Below, one piece after another: positions 6,316 to 61,833 of a DNA stretch of 64,000 bases (position 1 is its first letter; every line of letters begins with the position of its first letter). Below the pieces are notes generated by a model, which worked only from the letters and a program-made list of their open reading frames with translations, was not told the origin of the DNA and made no database searches. Both the position numbers and the translations under genes were made by a program. Source of the DNA: Candidatus Methanohalarchaeum thermophilum (GTDB taxonomy: Archaea; Halobacteriota; Methanonatronarchaeia; Methanonatronarchaeales; Methanonatronarchaeaceae); assembly GCA_001914405.1 (NCBI GenBank), contig MSDW01000001.1, forward strand, positions 1,623,498-1,687,497, written 5' to 3'.

Positions 6316-6650
6316 ACACCAAGAAAAAAACATAAAAACAAAAAACCAACAATAAAAAAACAAAACAAAATAAAAGACAACAGAAACCAAAAATCACCAT
6401 AACATAAACAAAATAAAATGAAACAGCTAAGAACCTAGATTATTTTTATTTTTATTTTTTTTAAGGAGGAAATAGGGAAAGAACTGGTCTTTTTACTCCT
6501 TGATAACTGGCTTATGGTTGGTATTTTTATTGGTTATGGGATCTGGATGATAGATGTTTTTTTTAGTAGGTAAGTTGAGTGGATAGGAGGATTTGGTTTG
6601 AAGAGGAAAAATTTAGTCTTGGGAGAAATATTTTTTAGGGAAGTAATAGT
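6316..6650 (+). other. Intergenic: A/C-rich trailer then T-tract
   Basis: The first roughly 110 bases after ahcY are nearly G-free A/C-rich sequence. A run of T-rich sequence at about 6438-6463 follows and is a plausible archaeal U-tract terminator for the 2239-6315 operon. The rest is G/T-rich and leads into rfcS. I see no ORF or RNA gene. Confidence 0.5.
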
Positions 6651-14648: not shown

Positions 14649-15716
14649 TTGATAGATTTGGGAAGCGTAAAGGACTTGGGGGTCAAAATTGACCCAAAGG
14701 AAGATGAGATGGGAGTAGGGGTCTTTGAGTTTTCAGACAGGTATTCTGTTTTCGACTGGGGAGAAATGCCTGATAAGATACCTAAGAAAGGAGCTTCTCT
14801 TTGTCTGATGGGAGCTTACTGTTTTGAAGAGCTTGAGGAAAAAGGATATAACACCCATTATAGAGGATTAATTCAAGATGGAGAAATAGTTAAGACCTCA
14901 GATTTAACCGAGCCAACTAATAAAATGGAAGTTGATTTGGTTAGGGTTCTTGAACCTGAATACAGGGAAACTGGATATGATTATTCAAAATTCTCCAGAT
15001 TAAATGAAAAGCAATCAGGTAATTTCTTGATTCCACTTGAAGTTATCTATAGGAATGGCCTTCCTGAGGGATCTAGTGTTTTTAGGAGACTTAGAGAGGG
15101 AGATATATCTCTTGATGATTTTGGCTTGGAAGAAATTCCTCAACCAGGAGAAGACTTAGAAAAACCTATTTTTGATGTTTCAACTAAATTAGAGGAAAAA
15201 GATAGGTATATTACTTGGGATGAAGCAAAAAAAATAGCTGGACTCTCTTCCAATGAATTAAAAAAGATAAGGGGTATTCTGAGTGAATCAAATAAGTTGA
15301 TCACAGATCTAGCGGAATCAGCTGGGTTAAAAAATGAAGATGGCAAGATTGAGCTTGCCTTTGATGCAGATAGAAATCCCATGGTCGTAGATGTACTAGG
15401 GACCTTGGACGAATGTAGATTTACTTTTGAAGGAACTCAGGTCAGTAAAGAAATGGCTAGAGAATTTTATAGAAATAGTGAATGGAAAGAGAGCGTGGAT
15501 AAGGCGAAGTCTAAGGCAGATGAAAAAGGAGAACGGGACTGGAAGAAATACTGCGATGAATCTCCTCCTAAATTAAACAAAGATTTAAAGGATTTAGTTT
15601 CAAGTATTTACATGTCAGCAGCAAATGAGTTCACTGGCTTAAATTTATTTGATGTGATGTCACTAGAAAGCTTAGTGGATAGGTACAATAAATTAAGGAG
15701 TGAGATATATGATTGA
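14649..15716 (+). CDS. purC: SAICAR synthetase, long archaeal form
   Basis: Phosphoribosylaminoimidazole-succinocarboxamide synthase, step 7 of IMP synthesis. The core motifs are FEFSDRYSVFDWGEMPD (about 25-41), IPLEVIYRNGLP (substrate site, about 116-127), SVFRR and the C-terminal VDVLGTLDECRFTFEG. At 355 residues it is longer than bacterial PurC (about 240), like haloarchaeal forms, with an inserted middle section and an extended C-terminus. The start is TTG with AAAGGGGA upstream. Its stop overlaps the ATG of the following purP paralogue by 8 nt, so the two are translationally coupled. Confidence 0.88.
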   Translation: MIDLGSVKDLGVKIDPKEDEMGVGVFEFSDRYSVFDWGEMPDKIPKKGASLCLMGAYCFEELEEKGYNTHYRGLIQDGEIVKTSDLTEPTNKMEVDLVRVLEPEYRETGYDYSKFSRLNEKQSGNFLIPLEVIYRNGLPEGSSVFRRLREGDISLDDFGLEEIPQPGEDLEKPIFDVSTKLEEKDRYITWDEAKKIAGLSSNELKKIRGILSESNKLITDLAESAGLKNEDGKIELAFDADRNPMVVDVLGTLDECRFTFEGTQVSKEMAREFYRNSEWKESVDKAKSKADEKGERDWKKYCDESPPKLNKDLKDLVSSIYMSAANEFTGLNLFDVMSLESLVDRYNKLRSEIYD

Positions 15717-16809
15717 TAGAAAAAGGATCCAGAATATTGTTTCTGAATACGATAAAGACGAAGTAACAATTGGAGTTTTAGGTTCGCATTCTGCTCTTGA
15801 AATAGGCCATGGAGCAAAGCAAGAAGGATTTGAAACCTTGGTTGTATGTCAAGAGGGAAGAGAAAGAACATATACTGAACATTACAGCAATCTATTTGAT
15901 GAAGTACTTCTATTAGATGATTTTTCTGATATGGTAGAAGAGGAAAATCAAGAGCGTATGAGAGAACTTAATACAATTTTTGTACCTAATAGGTCTTTTT
16001 CAGTGTACGTAGGATATGATAACATAGAAAACAGGCTTGAAGTTCCTTTATTAGGAAGTAGAAACCTTTTAAGGACGGAAGAAAGAGATCTAGAAAAAAA
16101 CCAATATTACCTACTAGATGAAGCAGGAATAAACAAACCTAAGATCTTTGATTCACCAGAGGAAATTGATAGACCAGCTATAATAAAAGTACCGGAAAAG
16201 GATCGAAAAATAGAGAGAGCTTTCTTTTATGCGTCTTCTTATGAGGAATACAAGAAAAGAGCCGAAAAAAGAATAGACAAAGGAATAATAGACAAAAAAG
16301 ATCTAGAAGAAGCCACAATAGAAGAATATATCTTAGGTGCTAAATTTAATGCAAACTACTTTTGGTCACCAATAAAACAGGAAATAGATCTATTAGGCTT
16401 TGATAGAAGAATACAAACCGATTACGAAGGAGTAACGGATCTACCTGCAGACGAACAGCTCGAAATAGGAATATCTCCACAAAATGTAGAGATAGGACAC
16501 ATGGGTGCTACAATGCGTGAATCACAGATAGAAATGATATTTGAAGAGGGAGAAAAATTTGTTGAAACCTCTGAAGAAGTATATCCACCTGGAATAATAG
16601 GGTTATTTGCTCTACAAGGAGCTGTAACAAAGGACCTTGAATTTTATGTCTTCGATGTAAGTCCAAGGATCCCAGGATGCCCATGCGTTGAACCAACATC
16701 ACCTTACACTAAATACAAATATATGAAAGAAGTCGGCCCAGGCAGAAGAGTGGCAATGGAAATAAAAGAAGCATCAGAGAAAGAAGAAATACAAGAATTA
16801 GTTACATAA
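15709..16809 (+). CDS. PurP paralogue (ATP-grasp), altered active-site loop
   Basis: This is homologous to 5-formaminoimidazole-4-carboxamide ribonucleotide synthetase PurP: GVLGSHSALEIGHGAKQEGF at the N-terminus, FVPNRSF, and a C-terminal DUF1297-like half. It differs at the sites conserved in true PurP: the glycine-rich loop FPGAKGGKGYF is replaced by VPEKDRKIERAFF, and FEISARI is replaced by FDVSPRIPG. A canonical PurP follows 30 nt downstream, so this copy may have another substrate or a partner role. I chose the ATG at 15709, 8 nt after AAGGAG (15695-15700), over a GTG at 15700 that lies inside that ribosome binding site. Confidence 0.82.
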   Translation: MIDRKRIQNIVSEYDKDEVTIGVLGSHSALEIGHGAKQEGFETLVVCQEGRERTYTEHYSNLFDEVLLLDDFSDMVEEENQERMRELNTIFVPNRSFSVYVGYDNIENRLEVPLLGSRNLLRTEERDLEKNQYYLLDEAGINKPKIFDSPEEIDRPAIIKVPEKDRKIERAFFYASSYEEYKKRAEKRIDKGIIDKKDLEEATIEEYILGAKFNANYFWSPIKQEIDLLGFDRRIQTDYEGVTDLPADEQLEIGISPQNVEIGHMGATMRESQIEMIFEEGEKFVETSEEVYPPGIIGLFALQGAVTKDLEFYVFDVSPRIPGCPCVEPTSPYTKYKYMKEVGPGRRVAMEIKEASEKEEIQELVT

Positions 16810-16839
16810 AACCCATTTCCAGGATAAAAGAGGTAAAGT

Positions 16840-17910
16840 ATGGGTATTTCAGAAATAATTAAAGACTATGATAGAAATAAATTAACAATAGGAACTATAG
16901 GATCACATTCAGCATTAAATATACTCAGAGGAGCAAAAGACCTCGGATTCAACACTCTATGTGTATGTGAAAAAAAATCAAAAATCACATATGATAGATT
17001 TGATGTCGCAGACAAATTTATCGTCGTCGAAGATTACGAAGAGATACTAAAAAACCAAAATATCAAAAAATTAAAGAAAAATAACACCATATTAGTTCCA
17101 CACGGATCATTTAACGCCTATCTAGGCCAAAAAGTCCTCGATTTAGCTGTTCCCTACTTTGGTAATCGAGAAATTCTTACCTGGGAGACCGATAGAGAAA
17201 AACAGAGAAAATGGCTAAAAAAAGCAAACATAAAATTACCTGAAACCTACGAAGATCCCTCTGAAATCGGAGACAACCTAGTTATCGCAAAATTCCCAGG
17301 AGCAAAAGGAGGAAAAGGATACTTCATAGCCGATTCAGAAGAATCATTCCACGAAAAAGCAGACGAAATGCAAAAAAAAGGCCATATAACAGAAAAAGAA
17401 AAAGAAAACATACACCTACAGGACTACATCATAGGAGTTAACGCATATCCTCAGTTCTTTAGATCAATACTAGAAGACGAAGTAGAATTACTTGGAATGG
17501 ACAGAAGATATGAGTCCACAGTAGACAGCATTGGAAAAATACCGGCACAAGTTCAAGAAGAAATAAAACCAAATCCAACCTACACAGTAACAGGAAACTT
17601 CCCAATGACACTTAGAGAATCACTACTATCAGAGTTATTTAGAATGGGAGACAACGTAGTAGATGTATCTTCCAACATATCAGAACCCGGATTGATAGGT
17701 CCATTCTGCTTGGAAACAGTATTTACAGAAGACCTAGAAGTATACACCTTCGAGATATCAGCCAGAATAGTAGCTGGAAGCAATGTAGGGATAGGAGGAT
17801 CCCCCTACGCCTATACAAAATACGGAAAAAACATGTACATGGGTAAAAGAATAGCCAAAGAAATCAAAGAAGCAGTAAAACAAAACAAACTCACAAAAAT
17901 ACTGTCCTAA
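16840..17910 (+). CDS. purP: FAICAR synthetase PurP
   Basis: Formate-dependent 5-formaminoimidazole-4-carboxamide ribonucleotide synthetase, the archaeal replacement for the transformylase half of PurH. At 356 residues it is full length. The N-terminal GTIGSHSALNI, LVPHGSFNAY, the ATP-loop AKFPGAKGGKGYF (about 150-162), LLGMDRRYES and the C-terminal FEISARI are all present, as in methanogen PurP. It starts after AGAGGT at good spacing. It lies third in a purC-purP'-purP operon. The coding strand becomes very A/C-rich near its end. Confidence 0.93.
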   Translation: MGISEIIKDYDRNKLTIGTIGSHSALNILRGAKDLGFNTLCVCEKKSKITYDRFDVADKFIVVEDYEEILKNQNIKKLKKNNTILVPHGSFNAYLGQKVLDLAVPYFGNREILTWETDREKQRKWLKKANIKLPETYEDPSEIGDNLVIAKFPGAKGGKGYFIADSEESFHEKADEMQKKGHITEKEKENIHLQDYIIGVNAYPQFFRSILEDEVELLGMDRRYESTVDSIGKIPAQVQEEIKPNPTYTVTGNFPMTLRESLLSELFRMGDNVVDVSSNISEPGLIGPFCLETVFTEDLEVYTFEISARIVAGSNVGIGGSPYAYTKYGKNMYMGKRIAKEIKEAVKQNKLTKILS

Positions 17911-17989
17911 CCCCATAACACCACAATAAAACACACACATAGAAAAAAAATCCAAACCAAAAGACAAGCCCACCAAAAAAAAGAGAGAC

Positions 17990-18045
17990 TAACCTTCATT
18001 TTTATAAAAACAAAATTTTATTTTTTTATCTTAAAACAGATATAA
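17990..18045. terminator. T-rich tract between convergent genes
   Basis: Between purP (plus) and the PUA gene (minus) lies an AT-only stretch with T-runs on the plus strand (about 17998-18035) and A-runs that are T-runs on the minus strand. U-tracts are the usual archaeal intrinsic terminator, so it could serve both genes. No hairpin is needed or obvious. Confidence 0.4.
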
Positions 18046-18082
18046 CCGAATTATAATTGATTTAATTTTGTTTAATTTGTTT

Positions 18083-20963: not shown

Positions 20964-21212
20964 TACAAATAAAAAAACATTAAAAACCAAAGAAAACAAA
21001 AATAACGAATTGAAATAAGCCAAAATCATCAAAGAAGAAGAAAAAACTAACTAAAACCCTAAAATAAAATAAAATAAAATAAACTATAGATAAAATACTA
21101 AATTCCAAGTAGACACATTAACATAGCATATAAATCAAATAATAGTTCTGTTTTTTAGTTGTCTTAAAGTTATATAATAAAATTTAGGGAAAGAAAGAGG
21201 TTTTTAAGTTTT
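20964..21212. other. Convergent intergenic region with AAAAT microsatellite
   Basis: An A-rich spacer between purF and the convergent DUF89 gene. A short tandem AAAAT run lies at about 21061-21083. T-rich tracts toward 21190-21200 may terminate the minus-strand gene. I see no gene. Confidence 0.45.
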
Positions 21213-22103: not shown

Positions 22104-22378
22104 AAATATCATCAATTATTAACAAATTTTTAACTTCGATTGATTACATTATCCCTACAAGATCTTTAAATATTGCCTAATCAATTCTTATAAAACTAAC
22201 TAAGTCCAGAAAAAACCCTGATCCAGACATCAATTAACATAAAAAATAAAGAACTTATAAAACATCTAAATTATACAGAACCTCAAAGAAGTCAGAATAT
22301 TAAATCTATTAGACTAAAACCCAACAAACAATGAAATTAAATAGGTTTTTTCAAATTTTTCCAATATTCGAACTAGAT
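22104..22378. other. Upstream intergenic region of the DUF89 gene
   Basis: AT-rich sequence without a supportable ORF. It should contain the DUF89 promoter and, at its right end, the promoter for whatever transcript includes the GC-rich locus that follows. Confidence 0.35.
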
Positions 22379-22443
22379 TTATCTTGGTGGTTGAGAAGAC
22401 CCCTTACTTAATCTCTTGATTAGGAAGGGGATGAATCAACCCA
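22379..22443 (+). repeat. Palindromic box, copy c
   Basis: A clear two-stem palindrome: outer arms GGTTGA / TCAACC, an internal loop GAAGA opposite ATGAA, inner arms CCCCTT...TTAATC / GATTA..AAGGGG. Of the nine boxes this one shows the fold best. The GAAGA/ATGAA loop has the GA steps expected of a kink-turn. Confidence 0.8.
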
Positions 22444-22650
22444 TAAGGCTTAAGTGGCTCCGTGTCTTAGGTTTTGGTTTAAGCTAGGCAGGGGTTGTGG
22501 CCGAAGCCAAAAGCCCGTGGACAGATTGAGAGTTCTGGTTACCAAGCTCGCTGGCTTGGGCCAGGGAACCTCCTCAAAAAGCTTCCTAGATAAGCGCCGC
22601 CCAGGACTGAGATTGGATGACGGCGGTAGGAAGTAAAACCTCCTTTAACT
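22444..22650 (+). ncRNA. GC-rich structured RNA candidate
   Basis: A stretch of about 200 nt, visibly more GC-rich than the surrounding DNA, with no coding frame of note. Two strong hairpins can be drawn. In the first, GTTC-TGG-TTA-CCAAGC closes on GGCTTGG-CCA-GGAAC (about 22531-22569). In the second, CTTCCTA ... CCGCC closes on GGCGG-TAGGAAG (about 22582-22632). Palindromic boxes flank it on both sides. GC enrichment in an AT-rich archaeal genome is a known sign of structural RNA. I looked for the SRP helix-8 GGAA/AGCA signature and the RNase P P4 motifs and found neither. The strand is assumed. Confidence 0.5.
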
Positions 22651-22652
22651 CT

Positions 22653-22701
22653 GGAAGCATCCTTCCAAAATCAAAGATTTTGGTAGAGGAGGAAGTCACA
22701 A
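22653..22701 (+). repeat. Palindromic box, copy d (partial)
   Basis: Inner part of the box family: CCTTCC, then AAAATC / GATTTT arms, then GGTAGAGGAGG and GTCAC. The 5' outer arm is reduced to GGAAGCAT. It marks the right edge of the GC-rich RNA candidate. Confidence 0.6.
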
Positions 22702-23095
22702 GTTATAGTCCTAAATTAGAAAACAATTAACTTAAGTTATTTTTATCTGAGGTCGAGGTCACTACAAAAAGATAAAGAAGCATTGGTTAAAAAATTATTT
22801 TTTGTATTATTAAGAGAAATTTATACAATGAATACTAAGATGGCTATCTTTTAGGTATTTAGATTTTGAAATTAGATTTAAAAAGGGTTTTTACTTTATG
22901 CAATGAAGTACATTAAAGGTGAAGTTAACTTACAGACATTAGGATTTAGAGCGAGATAACTGGTTCGAAACTTTTAAGGTAGAAGGTAATGATAATTACC
23001 TGAAATTATAAATAGTCATGAGTGAAGAGTATAGTGGAGTAATGTTAATTTTAGGATAAAAGCTAAAAGCAGTTAATTAACTCGAAAGGAAAATT
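22702..23095. other. Intergenic region before the gshA-like gene
   Basis: About 390 bp of AT-rich sequence with no gene that I can support. The last 20 bp hold AAAGGA ahead of the ATG at 23096. A promoter is expected but I cannot place it with confidence. Confidence 0.35.
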
Positions 23096-24217: not shown

Positions 24218-24571
24218 AGTACCTCCTGTAGCAAGCTGTAGGGTTTCCGATGTGGCCTCTTATCTCAAAGAGGAGTTTGGCTTTTATGTTGGATTTGTCT
24301 CACAGCACCCAAAATCAACATAGGATCTTGAGCCTTGAGTGAAGAAACGGATTAGGATCTCGCCATATATTAACTTGTAGATGGTTCCCTTATTCCTTTA
24401 GTGGCTGCTACACACCAGCCACCAAGAACCTACTCCAATAACTGTTTCCGGCTTACCCATCTATCTAATTACTCATACACCTATTCGATGCAGGATCCAA
24501 GACTTTAACAACCTCTCAAGACATGGGATTGCTTTTTGTTATATAGAATGCAGACAAACCAACCAACTGCC
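24214..24571 (-). mobile_element. Structured repeat element, copy 2
   Basis: Read on the minus strand: hairpin GGCAG...CTGC, AAAAAGCAATCCCATG, GGTAAGCCGGAAAC, GGAGTAGG, stem GTGGCTG / CAGCCAC, AATAAGGGAACC, AATATATGG, CCTAATCC, TTCTTCACTC, TGTTGATTTTGG, AAACTCC, GGAAACCC and terminal GGTACTTTAC. The terminus overlaps the gshA stop codon. It lies back to back with copy 3, a palindromic box between them. No transposase gene is inside. Confidence 0.82.
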
Positions 24572-24609
24572 AATTAAGGAATAACTGTTTTTCTTAATCC
24601 TTAAATATT

Positions 24610-24672
24610 TTATCTTAAATGTTGAGAAGACCCCTTCCAAAATCTTTGATTTTGGTAGGGGATGAATCAACT
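24610..24672 (+). repeat. Palindromic box, copy e
   Basis: TTATCTTAAATGTTGA, GAAGACCCC, inner arms TTCCAAAATC / GATTTTGGTA, AGGGGATGAATCAAC. The outer arms GTTGA / TCAAC and the GAAGA/ATGAA internal loop are preserved. It lies 41 bp before copy 3 of the structured element in the same orientation. Confidence 0.8.
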
Positions 24673-24713
24673 AGGAAGGGTTTAAGTGTTTTTGAGACTA
24701 ATTAAGAGTAACT

Positions 24714-25070
24714 GGCAGTTGGTTGGGAGTCTGCCTCATCAAAAAGCAATCCCGTTGCCTACACGGGGCGTGTCCGTGGACTGACTTGGAAACGAGTCAA
24801 GTAACGAGTTGAAAAAAAATAGGTAAGCCCGAAACTTCGGGAGTAGGGTGTAGTGGTTGTGTGGAGCAACCAGAGTGAATAAGGGAGCCATTGTGTAGCT
24901 AATATAGGGGCTTTGTGCCCTAATCCAATTCTTCACTCAGAGCGCAAGTTCCCTGTTGACGGTGTGTATGAGACAAGTACCGTGGAAAAGCAAACTCCTC
25001 TTTGGATAAGGCTCACAGGGAAGCCCCTTCCTCACCGAACGAATGTGAGGTAAGGTAGGGGTCACTTCAC
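24714..25070 (+). mobile_element. Structured repeat element, copy 3
   Basis: Good reference copy of 357 bp: GGCAGTTGGTTGGGAGTCTG hairpin, AAAAAGCAATCCC, GGTAAGCCCGAAAC, GGGAGTAGGG, stem GTGGTTG / CAACCA, stem AGAGTGAATAAGG paired with CTAATCC...TTCACTC, stem ACGGT / ACCGT, AAGCAAACTCC, GGATAAGG, GGGAAGCC, then a terminal hairpin (CCTCAC / GTGAGG within CCCCT / AGGGG) and TCACTTCAC. No open frame encodes a recognisable protein. Confidence 0.85.
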
Positions 25071-25238
25071 TTCAAATACTATTCATTCCGTGCTTTGAAA
25101 TACACATGTTTTCTGCCGTTAACTATGAGCTGCTGGTTGTTAGTGTATCTTATCTGTTATCATTTTTGACATAGAAGGTTTAGCAAAAAAAGAGGATTAA
25201 ATAAAAATGTATTGGTGTAATTTAGTTCTTAGTCGAGT

Positions 25239-26126: not shown

Positions 26127-27003
26127 ATTTAACACCTAATAACTAGAACTGTGATATAAGACCAATAGCTATTTATAATAGTTAGATGTATTTGATTTTT
26201 GGAGCAATTAAATATTTTGTAACCACTTTAGGAACAGAATAATTATGTTAAAGAAAGACTAATCAAATTAAAATCAAAGAAAATAAAATAATCTCTTAAA
26301 AGAAAGGAAAGAAACTATAACGTCTTTGGAAAACTTCCTAGATCTTTATATGAATGAGTAATAACAAGAAATTATAATTTCTTCTATTTGAATAAAAGAG
26401 GTCTCCGCATATATACATCTTTTTTTATTCAGGGATCGAAGTCTTTCTCTTAGAAGTAGTGAAAAATAAAGAGTCACTGACTCTTTTTAACCATCTTCTT
26501 GAGGTTCTTTTCTGTTTATCCAATTTCTATAGTAAAAGGTGGTGTTTTTGCTACAGAATTCAGTGAGCACTGCCTTAGAATATCCTCTGTTAATTTCTAT
26601 CAGGAAATTTGATTCCCAAAACATTTGATGATTCCTATGTTAAGATTTTGAGTCTTATAGAGATTTTTTATTTTTTAAACTACTGTAAAGGATGTGTTTT
26701 AACTAAATTAAAGCGTAATTTAATAGTAATTAATTTTTATAGATTTCATTTGTTTTTTATTTTGTTGTTTATTAGGTTTAAAGTTGATTTATTTAAATTA
26801 AATAGTTTTTATTGGATTACTTAAGCTTATTATGGGATGTAGTGTCTTTATCTGTTTTTAATTGATTGAAAGACAATTTAATTTATATGTAAAATCTTGG
26901 TTTAGGTTTTTTTGGGTAAATATGCTCGTATATTATAATTATGGGTCAACCCATAATCTTTTATATTTAAATTTGATATTAGAAGTTGGTAGCGGTTTTT
27001 AAA
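26127..27003. other. Long AT-rich divergent intergenic region
   Basis: About 880 bp between ftr (minus) and uspA (plus). Small hairpins are visible, for example GAGTCA CT GACTC near 26474-26486, but nothing I can name. Short frames such as 26609-26824 have AT-driven composition and no family resemblance. It must contain both promoters. Confidence 0.4.
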
Positions 27004-29527: not shown

Positions 29528-29561
29528 TTTTTTAAAATAAAAAAACTAATATTATGTTAAT

Positions 29562-39064: not shown

Positions 39065-39248
39065 AAAAGGGACTTTTCTTAGATAATTTAACATCAAAAA
39101 CTAGAAAAATAGAAAAACACTATTAAATTAATATTAAATCAATTCATTTCTTTTTGTAAGCAAAATAGATAGGATAGGGAAGAAATTTCATTTATTAAAA
39201 ACCAAAAAACAGATAATAAAAGCCAACTTTCCCTAAAATTTAGTTTTT

Positions 39249-47246: not shown

Positions 47247-47369
47247 GGCCTCATACAAAATTTCTATAAAACATGTACCTTAAATCATTTGATAAAAAAC
47301 AAAAAAAATAACAACATAACGCCATCTTTTAATTTAAACAAAACCACCTTTATCATTCTAATCTTGCTT

Positions 47370-47458
47370 TAGTTATTTCATAGACACATTCTGATAACCA
47401 TCTATCTTCTTTAATTCAGGGTGAAGTAAGATAGTAGATGGCTTCATGAAATAAACTA
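47370..47458. promoter_or_regulatory. Large two-part inverted repeat
   Basis: Outer arms TAGTTATTTCAT and ATGAAATAAACTA; inner arms CCATCTATCTT and AAGATAGTAGATGG around a loop containing TTAATTCAGGGTGAAG. The two arm pairs nest, so it would form a long hairpin in RNA or a cruciform/operator in DNA. It lies in the upstream region shared by the MEDS gene and serA. Confidence 0.6.
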
Positions 47459-47774
47459 TTTTGTCTATTCTTATCTTACTATCTAAATAACTATTTAAGT
47501 AGTATCTAGTTTATCTAAAAAAAGTTTAATCGATGAATAAAATCATATATTATGTAATTAGAGAAGGTTTTCTTTGTCCCAAATTTCAGTTGGTTGTGGG
47601 TGTCAGTTCTTTCTGGGAAAAGCAATTAAGTTTAATTTAATTTATTTTGGGTGTGGCAATGGAAAGAAATAATTAAGAATATAATTAAAAAGGATTAGGA
47701 AAATCATTTGTTGTATCAGGTTATGACCTGAAGATAAATATATATGTCATTTGTTGATAAGATCTGTTGGAAGA

Positions 47775-47839
47775 TAACTTCAACTACCCATCTCTAAATC
47801 AGAGATCTTGGAAGAGGTCTTTTCAACCACTAAGATAAA
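47775..47839 (-). repeat. Palindromic box, copy g
   Basis: Minus-strand reading: TTTATCTTAGTGGTTGAA, AAGACC, CTCTTCCAAGATCTCTGATT, GGGTAGTTGAAGTT. The start (TTATCTTAGTGGTTGA) is identical to copy i. The inner pairing is weaker than in copies c and e. Confidence 0.7.
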
Positions 47840-47926
47840 AGCCACAATGATAAGAGTATATATGGCTAATAGGGGTTTTAGTTCTCTCTTAAAGAGAAAA
47901 TAGGTTATAAAATTGCGTGAGTCACT

Positions 47927-49501: not shown

Positions 49502-50106
49502 AGAAAGAAACACAAAACACAAAAAACCAGGGAAAAACCAATTTTTAATACCTAAAAATTCTTTATCCCCCTATTTTAGATCTAAAAGAACACTCTCTCT
49601 AATGAATCTAAGATCTAAAAACCATTAACTCAAACAAGCGATACAATAATAACCGATTTCAGAGATAAAATAAAAATTTAATACAATTTTTTTTAATAAA
49701 ATAACTCTAATAGCTTACAACTCAAATCTATTTTAATAATCCTCATCTACCTAGATTCGGAGAAAAGTAGATCTAAACCTAATATATTTTTCGACCTGGT
49801 TACTCTTAACTTGGCTATTTTTAATCTAGGGTTATAGTGTAAGGTTATCTGTATTTTATGCAGCTCTGTATTTTATGCAGCTCAAAAAGGGTTTATTGGC
49901 TCTTAGTGTTTTTATTCTGAGTGTTGAAGGCCCAAGGAAATTTAGAATGAGTTTTTTTAAGTAGATCGGTGTGATTTCCTATTTAATAACTGAATGGTAG
50001 AGATGATATTAATGTGTTTTTAGTTGTTTTCTTGATGAATGGTTTTTTCTTGGTTCAGGATCTAGGGTTTTTAGTTTTTAATGGTTTTTTGGTTTTTGTG
50101 TGTTTT
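49502..50106. other. Convergent intergenic region with 17-bp tandem repeat
   Basis: About 600 bp between serA and aif2b. The left part is A/C-rich, the right part G/T-rich, matching the 3' ends of genes on the two strands. Candidate U-tract terminators lie at about 49685-49700. A perfect tandem repeat lies at 49849-49882. No gene that I can support. Confidence 0.45.
49849..49882 (+). repeat. Perfect 17-bp tandem repeat (two units)
   Basis: CTGTATTTTATGCAGCT occurs twice head to tail without mismatch. Each unit has CTG...CAG / AGCTGCAT-like partial dyad symmetry. Confidence 0.85.
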
Positions 50107-52199: not shown

Positions 52200-52548
52200 T
52201 TATCTAGGTAACTGGGATACTCATCTTTATCCGGATTGGAGTTTGCTTTTTTCCCATCCAGGGGAGGGTTCTCTCACTGCACCTAAATCAACATCTGAAA
52301 CTATTTGCTCCAAGAGAAGAATTGGATCAGGAAAAATACAAAAATCAATTATATTAACTTTTAGGTTTGTTTCCTTAATTCTCTCTTGGTAGTTTCTACA
52401 TCAGCCACTAGGACTCTACCCCAAAAGGTTTTGAGTTTACCCTAACACATCTTATTTGATGTAGCGTCTTAGGGGCTTTAGCTTAGCCAGAAGACCTTAA
52501 GAGACATGGGATCGATTTTTATTAAGGCAGACAAGCTAATCAACTGCC
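52200..52548 (-). mobile_element. Structured repeat element, copy 6 (3' end degenerate)
   Basis: Minus-strand reading: GGCAGTTGATTAGCTTGTCT hairpin, ATCGATCCCATG, GGTAAACTCAAAACC, GGGGTAGAGTCC, stem CCAAGAGAGAAT pairing with ATTCTTCTCTTGG, TTAATATAATTG, CCTGATCC, TGTTGATTTAGGTG, AAGCAAACTCC, GGATAAAG. The final hairpin and TTCAC terminus of the other copies are not recognisable; the sequence runs out at about 52200. The internal motifs are nearest to copy 1. Confidence 0.75.
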
Positions 52549-52746
52549 AGTTATCTTAAATTGCTCTTAGAACTATTTAAGTGCTAGAGTTGAATTATTC
52601 TGTGTAAGAGGGGTCCATGGATCCCGGTTCTAAAGTACAGGGCCTATACTGCTTCCTCGAAAAACCCACAGAAGGTAAAGATAATTGGTTTGTATTGGAA
52701 AAATATTTTGTTATTCAGACTTCTTTTTAATCTTTGTTTGAGTAAT
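52549..52746. other. Spacer with GGATCC-centred palindrome
   Basis: Between element copy 6 and the ftsJ-like gene. A near-perfect palindrome GGGTCCATGGATCCC lies at about 52611-52626. No ORF that I can support. Confidence 0.4.
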
Positions 52747-53505: not shown

Positions 53506-53522
53506 ATAGATAAATAGATAAA
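53495..53522 (+). repeat. ATAGATAA microsatellite over the ftsJ-like stop codon
   Basis: About three and a half 8-bp units (AATAGATA) cover the final codons and the TAA stop at 53503-53505 of the methyltransferase. Slippage here would alter the C-terminus by only a few residues. Confidence 0.7.
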
Positions 53523-53686
53523 AAACAAAAAGCAGAAATATATTAGCAAAAATCAAAGAAAACGCTATTAAGGACGATGAAATAACCAAATCTTAATATA
53601 ACATAATTAAACAAGATAATTCTATTAGTTGCTATTTAAGATATCAAGATTATTTTTTTGGGTTCTTTATCTATTTATTTTTTTTG

Positions 53687-54820
53687 TTAGTTTTTTGTTA
53701 GGTTTTTTAGTGTTTTTTTGAATTCTTGTAGGTCTGCGTTGGTTTTTATTCCTACATTATTGAAGTGGGTTTTTGTGGCTTTGTATCCTTTTTCTCTTAG
53801 TTCTTTGAGAACTTTTTGGTTTTTTGGTGCTGTGATTGAGAGTTTTTTACATGTTTTGTGTATGTCGTAGAAGGTGGGAGGGAGGTTTGTTTCTTGTATT
53901 AGTAAGTTGAGGGTTTCTGTGATTTTTTGTTTTGTGTTTAGTTTGAGGTTTTTTAGGTTTTTATTTATTTTTTTGAGGAATTTGGTTTTATTTAGGTTGT
54001 CTAGGTAAAATGGACCGGTTCCTGTGAACTTGTTTCCGCATCGACATCTTTTGTTTTTTATTAAAGGCACGGTTCCGGTTTTTATTTTTCTGTTACCACA
54101 GTTGGTGCAATGATATATGTAGCCCAGTTTTTTTAGAGCTTTGTCTGATTTTTTAGCTCCTTTTTTTATTTGGCCAAAGGATCTGAAGTAGTGGCTATCG
54201 TAATAGGTTAAGAGTGGGATGTATTGTTTATCGTATTGGGCTGCTGTTTTAATTAACTTTGATACTAGTGCTCTGCATCCGGATTCTTTGTGGTAGCTAG
54301 TGTTAAGGATCTTTGAACCGTATTTTCTTAATCCTGAGTTTTGGTGGGCTCCACATAGAGGAGCAGTGTCTGTGGCTGTTACACATATTAGTCCATTTCT
54401 TTTAATTGATTTAGAAGCAGGATCAAGGAATGAAACTGGGGAACCGTATGGGTCTAAGTCGATGATGTCGTATTTATTTTGTAGCATTAATAAGGAGCTA
54501 TCAACATTTCTTAGGGTTACATCGAAGTTTCCTCTTTCTTTGTTTTTCTTCATGAATTTGTATGCGCTTTTGCTTAGGTCGTTTATGGTTACATTGGTTT
54601 TGGGGATCTCGTTTTTTACTCTGATTCCTCTAACCCCTGTAGCACCATGAGCATCCAGATAACTCATTTCATCTTCTACAAATGTTGAGATTAATGCAAT
54701 GGTGAGGTCCCGATTAAATTCCATCTCAGGATTAAAAAAAACCTCTTGTTTTGGAGGAGGAAACTTTTCTACTGTCTTATCAGGAACCAAAAACTCTGTT
54801 TGACCTTCTGTAATTAACAT
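53687..54820 (-). CDS. trm1: tRNA (guanine26-N2)-dimethyltransferase
   Basis: Trm1 dimethylates G26 of tRNA. The 377-residue protein starts MLITEGQTEFLVP. FFNPEMEFNRDLTIALI, YLDAHGATGVRGIRV (SAM motif), DLDPYGSPVSFLDPA (catalytic DPYGSP) and CVTATDTAPLCGAH follow. The C-terminal zinc ribbon (YHCTNCG ... KRCRCGNKF) and a Lys-rich tail complete it. The coding strand is A/C-rich at its end. Confidence 0.94.
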   Translation of the reverse strand: MLITEGQTEFLVPDKTVEKFPPPKQEVFFNPEMEFNRDLTIALISTFVEDEMSYLDAHGATGVRGIRVKNEIPKTNVTINDLSKSAYKFMKKNKERGNFDVTLRNVDSSLLMLQNKYDIIDLDPYGSPVSFLDPASKSIKRNGLICVTATDTAPLCGAHQNSGLRKYGSKILNTSYHKESGCRALVSKLIKTAAQYDKQYIPLLTYYDSHYFRSFGQIKKGAKKSDKALKKLGYIYHCTNCGNRKIKTGTVPLIKNKRCRCGNKFTGTGPFYLDNLNKTKFLKKINKNLKNLKLNTKQKITETLNLLIQETNLPPTFYDIHKTCKKLSITAPKNQKVLKELREKGYKATKTHFNNVGIKTNADLQEFKKTLKNLTKN

Positions 54821-55884: not shown

Positions 55885-56045
55885 CTTATTTAAAATATTT
55901 ACCAAAATCTAATAAATCTACCTAATTAAGACCAAAAACCTAAAAAATAACCTAAATAAATAGAAAGAAAAATACAGGTAAAATAGATGTAAAACTAAAA
56001 CATAAAAAAGATAAGACGGAAACAACCAAAAAGAAAAAAGTCAAA

Positions 56046-56090
56046 GTCAACTACCCCTCCTTAATCAGAGATTTTGGAAGGGGTTGAAAG
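56046..56090 (-). repeat. Palindromic box, copy h
   Basis: Minus-strand reading: CTTTCAACCCCTTCC, AAAATCTCTGATTAAGG, AGGGGTAGTTGACTTTG. The outer arms change to CAA / TTG type pairing. It flanks the GC-rich locus on its left side, in the same orientation as copy i on the right. Confidence 0.65.
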
Positions 56091-56094
56091 AGCC

Positions 56095-56470
56095 CTAAGC
56101 AGGGGTAGAAGATTAGCCTAATGCGATGCCCCCTCAAAGGCCCAAAGACCAAGACCATTTAGTCAGAGTCGGAGTCTGATTCGGAGTCGGAGACCGAGGA
56201 TGGGGCAGTATGAGTTATGTTTGGGGCTGATTGTCTGACAAATACATCTTGGGGGTGACTCCCAAGCCATTAGGCTTTGGAAGTCCAGGCGGATGAAACA
56301 CGCCGATGTCGCCTAACCCAATTGGCGTGCAACATTGCCTTGGATCCTCTAATGCCTGCCCCGACATTGGCGATGGGAACTGAACCGCGTCTACGCTGAG
56401 ATGGCTTATAAAGCCCAACAAAGGGGAGGTTTAAACCCTGTGGGAGAAGTTGCTCCTCTCCTATATCCTA
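56095..56470 (+). ncRNA. GC-rich structured RNA, candidate RNase P RNA
   Basis: About 380 nt, strongly GC-enriched against AT-rich flanks. GGAAGTCCA (56279-56287) resembles CR-I of RNase P RNA, and TGAGATGGCTTATA (56397-56410) resembles CR-V. AAG(U)CCA at 56281-56287 pairs with UGGCUU at 56402-56407, keeping the bulged U of helix P4. GGGCT (56224-56228) can pair with AGCCC (56412-56416) as P2. A GTGCAACA at 56327 resembles the CR-II segment, and a P3-like hairpin CTTGGGGG...CCCAAG lies between. I could not draw P1 convincingly. If it is not RNase P RNA it is still a likely structural RNA. Palindromic boxes flank it. Confidence 0.42.
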
Positions 56471-56486
56471 CCCTAATTTAACATAG

Positions 56487-56553
56487 GTTGATTTATTCCT
56501 CTACCAAAATCAGAGATCTTAGAAGGGGGGTCTTTTCAACCACTAAGATAAAA
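56487..56553 (-). repeat. Palindromic box, copy i
   Basis: Minus-strand reading: TTTATCTTAGTGGTTGAA, AAGACCCCCC, TTCTAAGATCTCTGATTTTG, GTAGAGGAATAAATCAACC. Outer arms GGTTGA / TCAACC are perfect. It lies between the GC-rich locus and the beta-CASP gene. Confidence 0.75.
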
Positions 56554-56677
56554 TAGATAATAACCAAATTTTAAACTCCAAAATTAAGAATAAAACTAAA
56601 TTTTCAAATAAAATAAATGTAGATATAGAACGAAATCGAAAATAAAATTTTTAATTTAAATTAATTAGGTTGATAAG

Positions 56678-58300
56678 GTGTCAAAAGACGACAAGCAAAA
56701 TAGAGATAAAAGAGAAATAGTTTTTTTGGGTGGAGTAGAAGGTGTTCAAGGAAGCTGCTTTTACCTAAACGCAGGTAAACGGGACTACTTAATTGACTGT
56801 GGAATAAAACAGGAACAGCCAGCAGAATCCCCTGATTTCTCCTATCTAAACGAAAAAAACATTAAAATAGACGGAGTCTTCTTAACGCACGCACACTTAG
56901 ATCACTCCGGTGGTCTTCCATACCTAGAAGCAGATGACTATCTCACCGAAGAAGCCAAAATAATAGCTACAAATCCCACAAAGAACTTAGTTGAAACATT
57001 ACTCTGGGATAGCTTAAAAATCCACAAAATGGAAACCAAGAACCAAGGCCTAGATCAAAGCTATGGCCAAAATGATATAAGATCAATACTAGGTCGGTTC
57101 AAAGGAGTTGATTATGGAAAATATCAACTAAACAACCTAGACATAGAACTAGGATCCTCAACCCATATCCTAGGCAGCTCCTGGATCAAAATAACTTTAC
57201 AAGGAACCAAAATAACTTTCTCTGGAGACATAGGAGGAAACCACAGAACAAACCACCTAAAAGAACTGCAGAATCCAGGAGAAACCGATATACTAGTACT
57301 AGAATCAACATACGGCGACCAAAAAAACCAACCATCATTCACAGAAGCAAAAAACAAAGTATATAAACAAATAAAAGAATCACTAAACAAAAATGAACCA
57401 GTACTTATACCATGCTTCGCTATCGGTCGATCACAGGAAATCCTACAACTAATAAGAGAAAGAGAACACCAACTTCCAGACACAACTGAAATAGTATATG
57501 ATGGAATGATCTCAAAGGCCATGTCCGATTACCACAACTACGCAACCCATAGCTACATGAACGAAGCAATAATGAACTACAAATCCAACTCCAATGACTT
57601 AAAACCATTCTTACCAGACAAAGCATACAAACCGAACAAAATGGAAGAAAGACACAGACTATTAGATGGAGAAAAAACTCCATTGATAGTAGCTCCATCG
57701 GGAATGCTCGAAGGAGGATGGTCACCATACTACCTAATAAAAATGACAAAAAACTACGAAAACGCAAAGATCATACTAACCGGTCACCAAGTAACAGGAT
57801 CAGTAGGAAGAAAACTACTAGAAGCTAAAAGAGAAGACAAAAACAAAGTAAAAGTCCAAGTAACAGCATTAATGCCACCAGAAGAAGCCGACGAATTAAA
57901 CGGAAAAGGATATGGATTCCATGAAAAAAACATAAAAATACCAACAAACTGGGTAGAACAAGTAAACGGATTCAGCGGCCACTCAGCAGCAAACCAACTA
58001 CTACAATTCACCAGAAAAACAAACCCCAAAAAAATATACCTCACCCACGGAGAACCAAAAACAAAAAAACAATTTAAAACATTCCTAGAAAAAAACCTAA
58101 ACTCAAAAATAAAAATACCAAAACTAAACCAAAAAACAACAATAAAAACAAAAGAAAACGGCAAAACAACAATCAACCCAAACAAAATCAAAAAACTAAA
58201 AACCAAAATAAACAACCTAGAACAAAAAATCCAAAAACACGAAAAAACACTACAAAAACTCCAAACCAAAAACCAAAAACAAAACAAAAAACAAAAATAA
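56678..58300 (+). CDS. Beta-CASP metallo-beta-lactamase RNase (aCPSF2-like)
   Basis: A 540-residue RNA-processing nuclease. The metallo-beta-lactamase motifs are THAHLDHSGGLPYL (motif 2, about 72-85), LGSSWIKI and FSGDIG (motif 4). The beta-CASP motifs are LVLESTYGD (A), PCFAIGRSQEIL (near B), VAPSGMLEGG and FSGHSA (C). No KH domains precede the core, so it is not aCPSF1; it fits the aCPSF2 group. The last 70 residues are a Lys/Gln/Asn-rich coiled coil. The start is GTG after AGGTTGATAAG. The coding strand shifts from G-rich to C-rich from start to end, the clearest case in the window. Confidence 0.88.
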   Translation: MSKDDKQNRDKREIVFLGGVEGVQGSCFYLNAGKRDYLIDCGIKQEQPAESPDFSYLNEKNIKIDGVFLTHAHLDHSGGLPYLEADDYLTEEAKIIATNPTKNLVETLLWDSLKIHKMETKNQGLDQSYGQNDIRSILGRFKGVDYGKYQLNNLDIELGSSTHILGSSWIKITLQGTKITFSGDIGGNHRTNHLKELQNPGETDILVLESTYGDQKNQPSFTEAKNKVYKQIKESLNKNEPVLIPCFAIGRSQEILQLIREREHQLPDTTEIVYDGMISKAMSDYHNYATHSYMNEAIMNYKSNSNDLKPFLPDKAYKPNKMEERHRLLDGEKTPLIVAPSGMLEGGWSPYYLIKMTKNYENAKIILTGHQVTGSVGRKLLEAKREDKNKVKVQVTALMPPEEADELNGKGYGFHEKNIKIPTNWVEQVNGFSGHSAANQLLQFTRKTNPKKIYLTHGEPKTKKQFKTFLEKNLNSKIKIPKLNQKTTIKTKENGKTTINPNKIKKLKTKINNLEQKIQKHEKTLQKLQTKNQKQNKKQK

Positions 58301-58500
58301 AAAACCAAATTCCACAAAAAACCACCAAAAAACCAAAAAAAAATAAGTAAACAGCTAAAATCAAGAACCAAAATAAAATAAAAATAAATTAAAAAGCAAG
58401 ATCAGCTTATTATGTATGCTTTATCTATTTTAGGTTTTTTATTTATTTTCCAAAAATTTATTTAATCTTTTATCATAATGGTGACATAAGTTAAATTCTC

Positions 58501-59202: not shown

Positions 59203-61833
59203 ATGAATAACACAGTTAAAAACCTACTCACAATAGCAATAGCAACAACAATAATACTAACAGGAATAACCCTAATAACAACCCCGACAAAAGCCACCCA
59301 AACAGGAGCAGATATCCCAGACTATGGAGAAATGAGTTCTTCGTATGATAAATCCGAGATAGATGACATGATTTCTGATGGAGAATTAGATGAAGACGAC
59401 TTCGATGAAGAAGTACCAAATAAATTGGTTTTCCCAGATGGAGAATACGACAACTTCCAAGTCGCTGTTGAGAATATAACTATTGCCTCTGCAACAAGAG
59501 GAGGAGCAGTAATTGATGCAGGTGGAGATGATTACGCAATAGATGTTGAAGGAACAGATGAAGCTAAAACAATAACAATAAAAGGATTTAAAGTAACAGG
59601 ATGGACAACTGGCGGAATAGCACACGGAACGGATGCTAAAGACGGAACAGTAGTAGATGTAATACACAATAAAGTAAAAACTGGTGGAAGTGGCCCTGTT
59701 GCTCACGGCAATTCAATCCAAGTTGTTGGAGACGGTTCAGTTATTAAATACAACTATGTTGAAGTAACTGGATACGACCATGAGGAGCCTGATTGGGCTA
59801 CTTCAGGAATACTTGGAATGGCAAAGAACCTAGAGATAACAAACAACAAAGTCGAGTTTGTAGACGCTGGGGAATCCTCACACCACGTGGGAATAGCAGT
59901 AGGACAATGGCAAAGTGAAGAAATTAATCTCCCTGCTGAACAAGCTCTAGTGAAAGATAACACAATAATCGGCTCTGAAACAGGTATATCGGTTGAAGGC
60001 GGAACAGACTCCGATGTAGTTGAACATAACCTAATAAAAGACACAGAAACAGCAGTTGCAACAGGAACTTCAGGAGATGACTCAGGAGAAACACCAACCA
60101 ATACAGAAGTTCACTTCAATAACCTATCGAATAACGAATATGGTGTATGTAATTACGGCGATGACACTGTTAACGCCACTCTTAACTATTGGGGTAGTAA
60201 TAGTGGCCCAAGTAACAGCTCAAACACCTATAATGTTAGTGATCAAGGAGTTAAAGTAGTTGGAGATGTTGATTACACGCCTTGGTTAGTGAGAACTGAT
60301 GATAAAGATGAGTGTACTTCTTTTGCTCCCGTTGTTAACGATGATACAGGATTAAAATATTCTTCAATCCAAGAAGCAATAGATAACGCTGAAGAAGGTA
60401 ATAAAATATTAATTAAGCCTGGGAAATATCAGGAAGAAGTTGAAGTTGAAGAGGATATAACTTTGAAAGGAACTAGTTCACCTTTTGGTAACCAACCAGC
60501 TATTGTCAAGGATGGAGTAAACATCAGAGTTGATGGTGTAACTGTTAAAAACCTCAAAATAACAAATACAGGAAATAGCGGAGAGCAAGAAGCAATATTC
60601 GTAGGAGATCCAAATGGATACGAAGATGATTCAAGCGAGCAAATACTAATTAAAAATAATCTAATTGATGGAGTAAACACTACTAGTAGTGATTTTTCCG
60701 TAGAAGGTATACATATAAAGACATACGGTGAAGGCCATATAGAAGGTGTAGTGATAGAAAATAACATAATTAGGGATATAAAGCAATTGAAATATGGTGC
60801 TGATGGTATAAAACTTCAAGCAGACCTCGAGAATATTGAAATTGTGGATAATGAGATTTCTGGTGTAGAGGGATATTGGAGTTATGGAATAGTCTCCACA
60901 CCATCTTCTTTGCAACCGGGTGTTCCTAAGGATGTCTTGATTAGGTATAATAACTTTTCTGAGATTTCTTCTGTCCATGAGAACTGGGCAAATGTCATAG
61001 GAATAGATGGAGGTGAAGACTTGGGTTACGCGAGTGCAAGTGAAGTGGAATTTAATTACAATAATATCTTTGATACAACAGCTATTGTAGTTAATAAAGA
61101 TTCTGATAGTGTTCTTGATGCTAGGTTAAATTATTGGGGTGATGAAACTGGTCCTGAGAGAACTATTCAGGGAGAATCTGATAAAAAGGTCGGTGATGGA
61201 GCTAAAGTTGTTGGAGAAGTAGGATTTAAGCCTTGGTTGCCTAAGCCAGTAGATGAGTTTACAAATAGGAATTACAAGGTTTCAACGATGAAGCTTGAGA
61301 AGGGATGGAACACCTTCTCAGTTCCTTTTGAAATATCAAGTGATGAATTGTTTGGTGAACTAATCCCAAGCTACGAAGATCCAGTAGTTTCTGCGTATAA
61401 ATACGATTCAGAGGCCGATAAATGGAAAGAGGTAAATAAGGGCCGAGATGAGATTGAGGCTATGCAAGCGATTTATATTAAGGTTGATAGGCCGGTAAAA
61501 GTGAACTTGGATGTAAATGCTGAGCTTAGGTCTCCTCCTGCCGTTGAATTGGATTCGGGATGGAATTTAGTAGGTCCTTCACCAATGGAAATCTTTAGTT
61601 CTGTTCAGTTGTCAGATGGATTTGGTATAAATAAGATTGAGGAAGTTTCTGCAGTTTTGAGTGGTGGACCGAATGAAAAATCGTGGAAGTATCAACCTGG
61701 ACAGTCTACTGGTGATGAACCTGATGTTAGTGCATTTAGTGGATATTGGGTATACATGGATGGTGGTGAAGAGATATACGGGTTTAAAGAGTCTCCAAAG
61801 CTAAATAAGTTAGCAAGTGAAGCTGGGTCATAA
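59203..61833 (+). CDS. Exported right-handed beta-helix surface protein
   Basis: An 876-residue protein. A signal peptide spans residues 1-31 (LTIAIATTIILTGITLITT, cleavage near TKA). Two parallel beta-helix regions follow (about 75-350 and about 365-670) with recurring I-x-N-N/V-I-E-N rungs (ITIKGFKV, LEITNNKVEF, VIENNIIRD, IEIVDNEIS) and LNYWG at the end of each, as in NosD/pectin-lyase-like archaeal surface proteins. A C-terminal domain (about 690-860) has two GWN motifs (LEKGWNTFSVPFE, LDSGWNLVGP). No PGF-CTERM or transmembrane tail is visible. It is acidic throughout. The next gene starts 14 nt later, so they are cotranscribed. Confidence 0.85.
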   Translation: MNNTVKNLLTIAIATTIILTGITLITTPTKATQTGADIPDYGEMSSSYDKSEIDDMISDGELDEDDFDEEVPNKLVFPDGEYDNFQVAVENITIASATRGGAVIDAGGDDYAIDVEGTDEAKTITIKGFKVTGWTTGGIAHGTDAKDGTVVDVIHNKVKTGGSGPVAHGNSIQVVGDGSVIKYNYVEVTGYDHEEPDWATSGILGMAKNLEITNNKVEFVDAGESSHHVGIAVGQWQSEEINLPAEQALVKDNTIIGSETGISVEGGTDSDVVEHNLIKDTETAVATGTSGDDSGETPTNTEVHFNNLSNNEYGVCNYGDDTVNATLNYWGSNSGPSNSSNTYNVSDQGVKVVGDVDYTPWLVRTDDKDECTSFAPVVNDDTGLKYSSIQEAIDNAEEGNKILIKPGKYQEEVEVEEDITLKGTSSPFGNQPAIVKDGVNIRVDGVTVKNLKITNTGNSGEQEAIFVGDPNGYEDDSSEQILIKNNLIDGVNTTSSDFSVEGIHIKTYGEGHIEGVVIENNIIRDIKQLKYGADGIKLQADLENIEIVDNEISGVEGYWSYGIVSTPSSLQPGVPKDVLIRYNNFSEISSVHENWANVIGIDGGEDLGYASASEVEFNYNNIFDTTAIVVNKDSDSVLDARLNYWGDETGPERTIQGESDKKVGDGAKVVGEVGFKPWLPKPVDEFTNRNYKVSTMKLEKGWNTFSVPFEISSDELFGELIPSYEDPVVSAYKYDSEADKWKEVNKGRDEIEAMQAIYIKVDRPVKVNLDVNAELRSPPAVELDSGWNLVGPSPMEIFSSVQLSDGFGINKIEEVSAVLSGGPNEKSWKYQPGQSTGDEPDVSAFSGYWVYMDGGEEIYGFKESPKLNKLASEAGS

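What the first reader, a model, noticed from the sequence alone, without database searches (positions are those of the whole stretch)
56678..58300. Coding-strand drift from G-rich starts to C-rich ends
Many genes begin G/T-rich and end A/C-rich on the coding strand, and the trend continues into flanks. In the beta-CASP gene I count about 19 G and 3 C in 56701-56760 but about 2 G and 14 C in 58201-58260. ahcY, purP, rfcS and purF show the same on the plus strand; trm1 has a C-rich coding-strand end on the minus strand. Leucine codons move from TTA/TTG to CTA and Asn from AAT to AAC within genes. This points to a transcription-position-linked mutation or selection process.
Basis: seen in the sequence. 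Interest (0 to 1): 0.6.

Follow-up and report, generated by a model that had tools for sequence, protein, structure and literature searches.

The report
Untranscribed gaps emit strand-biased mutation
In this salt-loving archaeon the two DNA strands differ in base make-up in a sawtooth that restarts at almost every untranscribed gap between genes and fades over about 1,000 bases on both sides, whichever way the genes are read, which points to a short-range, strand-biased DNA process that starts in those gaps rather than to transcription.

Summary
Third-codon (G+T)-(A+C) falls from +0.05 to -0.33 along transcription units, GC content is unchanged, and shuffling that keeps the protein fixed does not produce it. 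It is absent or very weak in the same-family genome and absent in more distant relatives. The interpretation needs changing. The pattern is not tied to transcription direction or limited to one transcription unit. It is a sawtooth anchored at untranscribed gaps. From a gap, the strand running 5'->3' outward is G/T-rich for about 1 kb. The amplitude is equal on genes read away from the gap (0.354) and toward it (0.339). Convergent gaps of 50 nt or more, tandem gaps of 150 nt or more and divergent gaps of 400 nt or more are sources. Shorter gaps, including short divergent promoter gaps, are not, and the signal passes through them into the neighbouring gene with the predicted slope (1.11 and 1.25; a transcription-unit model predicts 0). 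Most likely cause: short-range, strand-biased DNA synthesis running outward from untranscribed gaps (repair-type synthesis or abortive/dispersed replication initiation). The polarity matches a leading strand and is opposite to resection damage. The genome is probably Ca. Methanohalarchaeum thermophilum. The machinery is unidentified.

The parts
56678..58300 (+). beta-CASP RNase gene (540 aa; best but sub-cutoff matches to aCPSF1 and Cas14 families), the example of the finding; skew falls from the gap on its left to the gap on its right
55906..56677 (.). source gap: divergent, 772 nt, contains copies of the intergenic repeat; the strand running right is G/T-rich
   Evidence: Class and size; amplitude of divergent gaps over 400 nt 0.24-0.33
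58301..58500 (.). source gap: tandem, 200 nt, no repeat; A/C-rich until about 58400, then T/G-rich
   Evidence: Sequence; class; tandem 150-400 nt amplitude 0.16-0.20
53506..53686 (.). source gap: convergent, 181 nt; minimum of the skew walk at 53619
53687..54820 (-). trm1, coding-strand third-codon skew -0.21 -> -0.83
20964..21212 (.). source gap: convergent, no repeat; abrupt A/C to G/T switch, walk minimum at 21142
17911..18082 (.). source gap: convergent, no repeat; walk minimum at 18015
39065..39248 (.). source gap: convergent; walk minimum at 39238
22116..23095 (.). source gap: divergent, 980 nt with repeat element; walk minimum at 22341 although both genes read away from it
24218..25238 (.). 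source gap: convergent, 1021 nt with a full copy of the ~467-nt repeat element (about 24609-25072)
26136..26985 (.). source gap: divergent, 850 nt, no detected repeat; walk minimum at 26371
47259..47926 (.). source gap: divergent, 668 nt; walk minimum at 47348
49502..50106 (.). source gap: convergent, 605 nt; walk minimum at 49782
6316..6650 (.). source gap: tandem, 335 nt, between ahcY (A/C-rich end) and rfcS (G/T-rich start)
14649..17910 (+). purC-purP-purP operon: the gradient continues through three genes without reset (third-codon skew 0.07 -> -0.65)

Best explanation
Untranscribed gaps between genes act as bidirectional sources of a short-range, strand-asymmetric mutational process. From each gap, for about 1-2 kb on both sides, the strand that runs 5'->3' away from the gap gains G and T at the cost of A and C. 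SHOWN: anchoring at gaps, both-sided symmetry, independence from transcription direction, range of about 1 kb, leakage through short gaps, gap-size thresholds by orientation, no GC change, graded response by codon position, and near absence in relatives. INFERRED: the cause is DNA synthesis that starts in DNA not swept by RNA polymerase and runs outward. It is either repair/recombination-type synthesis or abortive/dispersed replication initiation. The outward-copied strand, or the template strand exposed ahead of it, collects C->T and A->G changes (G.T mispairing or deamination). Transcribed and promoter DNA would exclude the source, so gene-end gaps and long gaps serve as sources and short promoter gaps do not.
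For: An additive model with sources at junctions and lambda about 1 kb beats the same model confined to one transcription unit in 10-fold block cross-validation (R2 0.1665 against 0.1498). Source amplitudes: long convergent 0.342, long divergent 0.304, long tandem 0.244, all short classes about 0. Onset thresholds: ~50-80 nt convergent, ~150-200 tandem, ~400 divergent; amplitude roughly flat above each. Residual on the contribution from beyond a short junction: slope 1.11 (0.30-1.88) through divergent, 1.25 (0.67-2.04) through convergent junctions. In short divergent pairs the 5' skew depends on the partner's length. Amplitude 0.354 on genes read away from a source and 0.339 toward it, and similar in both chromosome arms. 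Codon-position amplitudes 3>1>2, and the same in conserved genes and with strict gene calls. GC content effect 0.00; both T/(T+C) and G/(G+A) respond; chromosome-scale term about 0; G001 and G002 show no convergent or tandem effect. The skew-walk minima in the window lie almost all in gaps of every orientation.
Against: Noncoding DNA just upstream of starts is skewed less (+0.05 to +0.09) than third codons inside the gene, whereas the 3' flank is strongly skewed (-0.13 to -0.17 in the first 50 nt). A point source in the gap would predict more. The model explains only about 17% of variance per 25-codon bin. DNA synthesis was not observed; no polymorphism or substitution data were available. RNase HII, UDG, NucS and Orc1 are all present, so no broken pathway was found to explain the lineage restriction.
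Confidence: 0.55

Rival explanations
1. Dense dispersed replication: the chromosome is copied mainly from initiation events in hundreds of untranscribed gaps, so fork direction changes sign at every gap. These would be miniature versions of the human skew N-domains.
For: Polarity matches a G/T-rich leading strand; initiation outside transcribed DNA is the human pattern (PMC4729899). Chromosome-scale skew is nearly absent. A profile scaling linearly with segment length is only slightly worse than the fixed-range one (CV R2 0.159 against 0.169).
Against: The effect decays within about 2 kb even in segments longer than 8 kb. Amplitude does not grow with gap length. An orc1/cdc6 gene sits at 152 kb close to the weak skew minimum. 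It needs an initiation every few kb.
Confidence: 0.2
2. Transcription-linked mutation along the transcription unit: non-template strand exposure near promoters and some opposite bias near terminators.
For: The gradient runs through whole operons and the 3' effect ends within about 100 nt of the stop.
Against: No 5' effect at short divergent promoters; the effect crosses into neighbouring units; symmetric amplitude for sense and antisense; same profile in mixed-orientation segments.
Confidence: 0.07
3. Pervasive non-coding transcription starting in gaps and running outward in both directions, with mutation of the non-template strand.
For: Same polarity and both-sidedness.
Against: The strongest outward transcription, that from short divergent gene promoters, has amplitude about 0. 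Sense and antisense would have to be equal.
Confidence: 0.06
4. Break repair with 5' resection in gaps, as at human meiotic hotspots, where exposed single strands are mutated for about 2 kb on both sides.
For: Same range, two-sided strand asymmetry, and A and C as the mutated bases on one strand (PMC7615360).
Against: Opposite polarity. Resection exposes the strand whose 3' end is at the break, which to the right of a gap is the minus strand, and that would make the plus strand A/C-rich there; it is G/T-rich.
Confidence: 0.05
5. Selection on mRNA (codon usage, avoidance of structure at 3' ends, termination signals).
For: A general drift to A-ending, AT-rich codons at gene ends is described in 91 species (PMC6892556).
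Against: GC content does not change here; C rises with A and T falls with G. 3' ends at convergent gaps under 50 nt show nothing. Dependence on the neighbouring gene's length and antisense symmetry have no explanation in mRNA selection. Flat in controls.
Confidence: 0.04
6. The ~467-nt intergenic repeat or IS200/IS605 activity causes the bias.
For: Divergent gaps of 150-400 nt become sources when a repeat is present (0.30). IS200/IS605 transposase matches 24 in G000 against 3 in G001.
Against: Convergent and tandem gaps without repeats are full sources. G001 has the repeat too, but not the pattern.
Confidence: 0.03

Closest known systems
Skew N-domains of mammalian genomes (Petryk et al. 2016, PMC4729899)
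   Same: Saw-tooth strand skew, upward jump at non-transcribed zones, decline across the transcribed interval, leading-strand-like polarity
   Different: About 1-2 kb range instead of about 1 Mb; prokaryote; range fixed rather than scaling with interval; replication not shown
Strand-asymmetric mutation around meiotic double-strand breaks (Hinch et al. 2023, PMC7615360)
   Same: About 2 kb on both sides, mirror-image asymmetry, A and C the mutated bases on one strand
   Different: Opposite strand; programmed human breaks; here at most untranscribed gaps of an archaeon
Replication GC/TA skew of prokaryote chromosomes (archaeal survey: Paravel et al. 2026, PMC12999951)
   Same: Outward strand G/T-rich, as a leading strand is
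   Different: Chromosome-scale component almost absent here; hundreds of local sources. The survey concludes archaea make little strand-specific mutation
Codon-usage drift toward gene 3' ends (Zahdeh and Carmel 2019, PMC6892556)
   Same: A-ending codons rise toward the 3' end
   Different: Theirs is a GC-content trend attributed to RNA folding; here GC is constant and the driver is the neighbouring gap
Transcription-associated strand asymmetry of vertebrate genes (PMC2927911, listed, not read; details from general knowledge)
   Same: G/T excess on the coding strand near 5' ends
   Different: Here it depends on the gap, not the promoter, and is mirrored at 3' ends

Membership tests
Skew N-domain (replication-type) | Upward skew jump at non-transcribed zones and decline between them on a fixed strand | tested here: met
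Skew N-domain (replication-type) | Leading-strand polarity (outward 5'->3' strand G/T-rich) | tested here: met
Skew N-domain (replication-type) | Linear decline that scales with interval length | tested here: inconclusive
   Fixed range fits a little better (CV R2 0.169 against 0.159) and decay is within ~2 kb in long intervals
Skew N-domain (replication-type) | Borders are replication initiation zones | not testable with these tools
   Needs nascent-DNA or Okazaki sequencing
Transcription-associated mutational asymmetry | Effect at every promoter, on the transcribed unit only | tested here: not met
   No effect at short divergent gaps; leakage beyond the unit
Transcription-associated mutational asymmetry | Sense and antisense directions differ | tested here: not met
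   0.354 against 0.339
Resection-associated (meiotic-break-type) asymmetry | C and A lost on the strand ending 3' at the break (forward strand, left side) | tested here: not met
   The forward strand left of a gap gains A and C; human polarity from PMC7615360
Chromosome-scale replication skew | Sign of skew set by replichore | tested here: not met
   200-kb terms are near 0, at most about 0.06 in size, against 0.24-0.34 for local sources
Codon/mRNA selection at gene 3' ends | Depends on the gene itself, not on the neighbour | tested here: not met

The most novel reading that the evidence does not exclude
Most untranscribed gaps of this archaeon start DNA replication, so its chromosome is copied from hundreds of dispersed, transcription-excluded initiation zones with forks only a few kb long. 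This would be a gene-scale version of the metazoan replication programme, and invisible to chromosome-scale skew analysis.
Probability: 0.18. Interest if true: 0.93.

Novelty: new variant of a known kind. Interest (0 to 1): 0.8.

Why it matters
A recent survey concludes that archaea hardly make strand-specific mutations; here is an archaeon with strong asymmetry hidden at the scale of single genes, where chromosome plots cannot see it. The pattern is a fossil record of where a DNA process starts and how far it runs. That makes the question of replication or repair initiation in non-transcribed DNA of an archaeon directly testable, and it gives a sequence-only assay that can be run on any genome. 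It would also explain extreme A/C-rich gene ends and low-complexity C-terminal tails as products of mutation pressure rather than function.

Tried and rejected
Amino-acid composition: rejected by synonymous shuffles that keep the protein. Per-gene translational ramp: rejected, the gradient continues through operons. Gene-calling artefact: same result with strict calls and with 500 conserved genes only. Shuffling bins within genes roughly halves the long-gap amplitudes; the remainder reflects gene means. Loss of RNase H, uracil glycosylase, NucS or Orc1: all present. The intergenic repeat as the cause: not necessary and shared with G001. Resection damage: wrong polarity. Known RNA family for the repeat: none. 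A named relative by genome-contig search: nothing useful. Literature searches found no earlier description of gap-anchored, gene-scale skew in a prokaryote, but the library is partial.

Full report
OBSERVATION. The genes it named are correct: ahcY, rfcS, purP (two copies in a row), purF, trm1.

GENOME-WIDE. I read 1.6 Mb of contig C1 in stretches plus the window and called 1,287 genes with a simple amino-acid-based caller. Along genes, third-codon G and T fall while A and C rise, at 4-fold and 2-fold sites and in Leu codons; 73% of genes of 200 aa or more decline. The decline runs through operons without reset: in units of three or more genes the first gene goes from 0.00 to -0.09 and the last from -0.21 to -0.34; the ribosomal-protein cluster goes from -0.13 to about -0.6 to -0.7 over about 12.5 kb. 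CRISPR-cas operons, probably late arrivals, are flat. The 3' bias continues only about 75-100 nt past the stop.

LINEAGE. The same code on the same-family genome G001 (GC 34%) gives an almost flat profile (-0.09 to -0.12); G002, G008 and G013 show no decline. In the junction model G001 has no convergent or tandem effect; it shows a weak 5' effect at divergent gaps that differs from the pattern here. The window genome has two PylRS genes above the family cut-off, the described hallmark of Ca. Methanohalarchaeum thermophilum HMET1 (PMC9071458). I take that as the probable identity, by inference.

WHAT ANCHORS THE PATTERN. A skew that falls from plus to minus along a segment looks identical read from the other strand, so its presence in genes of both orientations cannot by itself show a link to transcription. 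Three observations broke the tie. First, minima of the cumulative (G+T)-(A+C) walk in the window lie almost all in intergenic gaps of every orientation, convergent and divergent alike. Second, gap size matters: divergent 5' ends with gaps of 50-400 nt show no G/T excess and those above 400 nt do; convergent 3' ends with gaps below 50 nt show nothing and those above show the full effect. Third, in short-gap divergent pairs the skew at a gene's start depends on the length of the partner gene.

THE MODEL. I fitted coding-strand skew as a baseline plus contributions from every junction, decaying with distance, with the sign set by DNA strand rather than by gene. The best range is about 1 kb; the version allowed to cross transcription-unit borders beats the confined version in block cross-validation (0.1665 against 0.1498). 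Amplitudes are 0.342 (long convergent), 0.304 (long divergent) and 0.244 (long tandem), with all short classes at zero. Onsets near 50-80, 150-200 and 400 nt for convergent, tandem and divergent gaps add up as if about 30 nt after a stop codon and about 200 nt before a start codon were closed to the source. That is what would be expected if transcribed and promoter DNA is excluded. Above the onset the amplitude is roughly flat. The part of the residual predicted to leak through a short divergent or convergent junction has slope 1.11 (0.30-1.88) and 1.25 (0.67-2.04), where 1 is a DNA-level process and 0 a unit-confined one. Genes read away from and toward a source feel the same amplitude (0.354 and 0.339), and both chromosome arms agree in sign and left-right symmetry. 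Mixed-orientation segments show the same profile as single-orientation ones. Results hold for conserved genes and strict gene calls.

MUTATION OR SELECTION. The response is largest at codon position 3, smaller at 1 and smallest at 2 (0.342, 0.116, 0.041 for convergent sources), GC content does not move, and both the pyrimidine (T/C) and purine (G/A) pairs respond with similar strength. That is the signature of directional, strand-specific mutation. Selection on mRNA has no reason to depend on the neighbour's length or to vanish at short convergent gaps. The described tendency to A-rich codons at gene ends (PMC6892556) is a different, GC-content effect.

MECHANISM. The outward-running strand gains G and T, like a leading strand. 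Conventional replication is not the writer: chromosome-scale terms are near zero, with only a weak minimum near the orc1 gene at 152 kb. Resection damage as at human meiotic breaks has the right range but the opposite strand (PMC7615360). Outward transcription is excluded as the main cause because the strongest case of it, short divergent promoters, has no effect. The remaining class is DNA synthesis starting in untranscribed DNA and running outward about 1-2 kb: repair or recombination synthesis, nick-primed strand displacement, or abortive or dispersed replication initiation. A common G.T-mispair error of the copying polymerase, or deamination of the exposed strand, would turn both A and C of that strand into G and T (inference). 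The fixed range favours short tracts over full forks, but only moderately.

OPEN POINTS. Upstream noncoding DNA is less skewed than third codons just inside genes, which I cannot explain. The model accounts for about 17% of variance per 25-codon bin. Present repair genes do not point to a lost pathway. A family of about 250-350 copies of a structured, hairpin-ended ~467-nt repeat fills many long gaps. Gaps holding it act as sources, but gaps without it do too, and G001 has it without the pattern.

VERDICT. Observation confirmed and stronger than reported. Interpretation corrected from transcription-linked to gap-anchored and bidirectional. I found no earlier report of such gene-scale, gap-anchored skew in a prokaryote in the partial library searched; the closest known patterns are human N-domains and meiotic-break asymmetry.

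Noticed in passing
window 24609-25072, 22376-22720, 29541-29830, 52266-52580 and ~250-350 intergenic regions genome-wide: Large family of structured non-coding repeats (~467 nt, hairpin-rich ends, some copies 97-99% identical, others ~80%), no Rfam match, folds better than shuffles (z -3.0); shared with G001. The second end of many copies carries GTAGGGGTCACTTCAC-like sequence. Could be a non-autonomous IS200/IS605-type element.
   Followed up: partly
window 10502-12224: CRISPR array of at least 26 repeats (GTCTTAATCAGACTAAAATAGGATTGAAAT, 66-69 nt spacing).
   Followed up: no
G000 C1 and C2, many places: 24 matches to IS200/IS605 Y1 transposase, many with internal stops, against 3 in the same-family genome.
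   Followed up: no
window 59203-61833: 876-aa gene with a NosD-like repeat match whose gradient runs the opposite way (third-codon skew -0.32 to +0.28); perhaps a late arrival or misjudged flanks.
   Followed up: no
window 56678-58300: beta-CASP RNase with equally good sub-cutoff matches to aCPSF1 (C-terminal part only, no N-terminal region) and type VII Cas14; the last ~60 residues are a Lys/Asn/Gln tail that looks like a product of the A/C pressure.
   Followed up: partly
G000 C1:774719-781961 and C1:1262815-1271978: Two CRISPR-cas-like operons without the gradient, unlike housekeeping operons; usable as an age marker for acquired genes. Identified by eye from protein starts, not by family search.
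   Followed up: no
G000 C1:13669-14388 and C1:1556333-1557052: Two pyrrolysyl-tRNA synthetase genes above the family cut-off, matching the description of Ca. Methanohalarchaeum thermophilum HMET1.
   Followed up: yes
G000 C2:88688-90195: Broken or partial extra Orc1/Cdc6 copies next to an intact one at C2:99166-100248.
   Followed up: no
repeat flanks genome-wide: Skew around the repeat depends on its orientation (right side +0.20, left side -0.10), as if it inserts preferentially into one strand.
   Followed up: partly
window 15700-17910: Two purP-type genes in a row behind purC.
   Followed up: no
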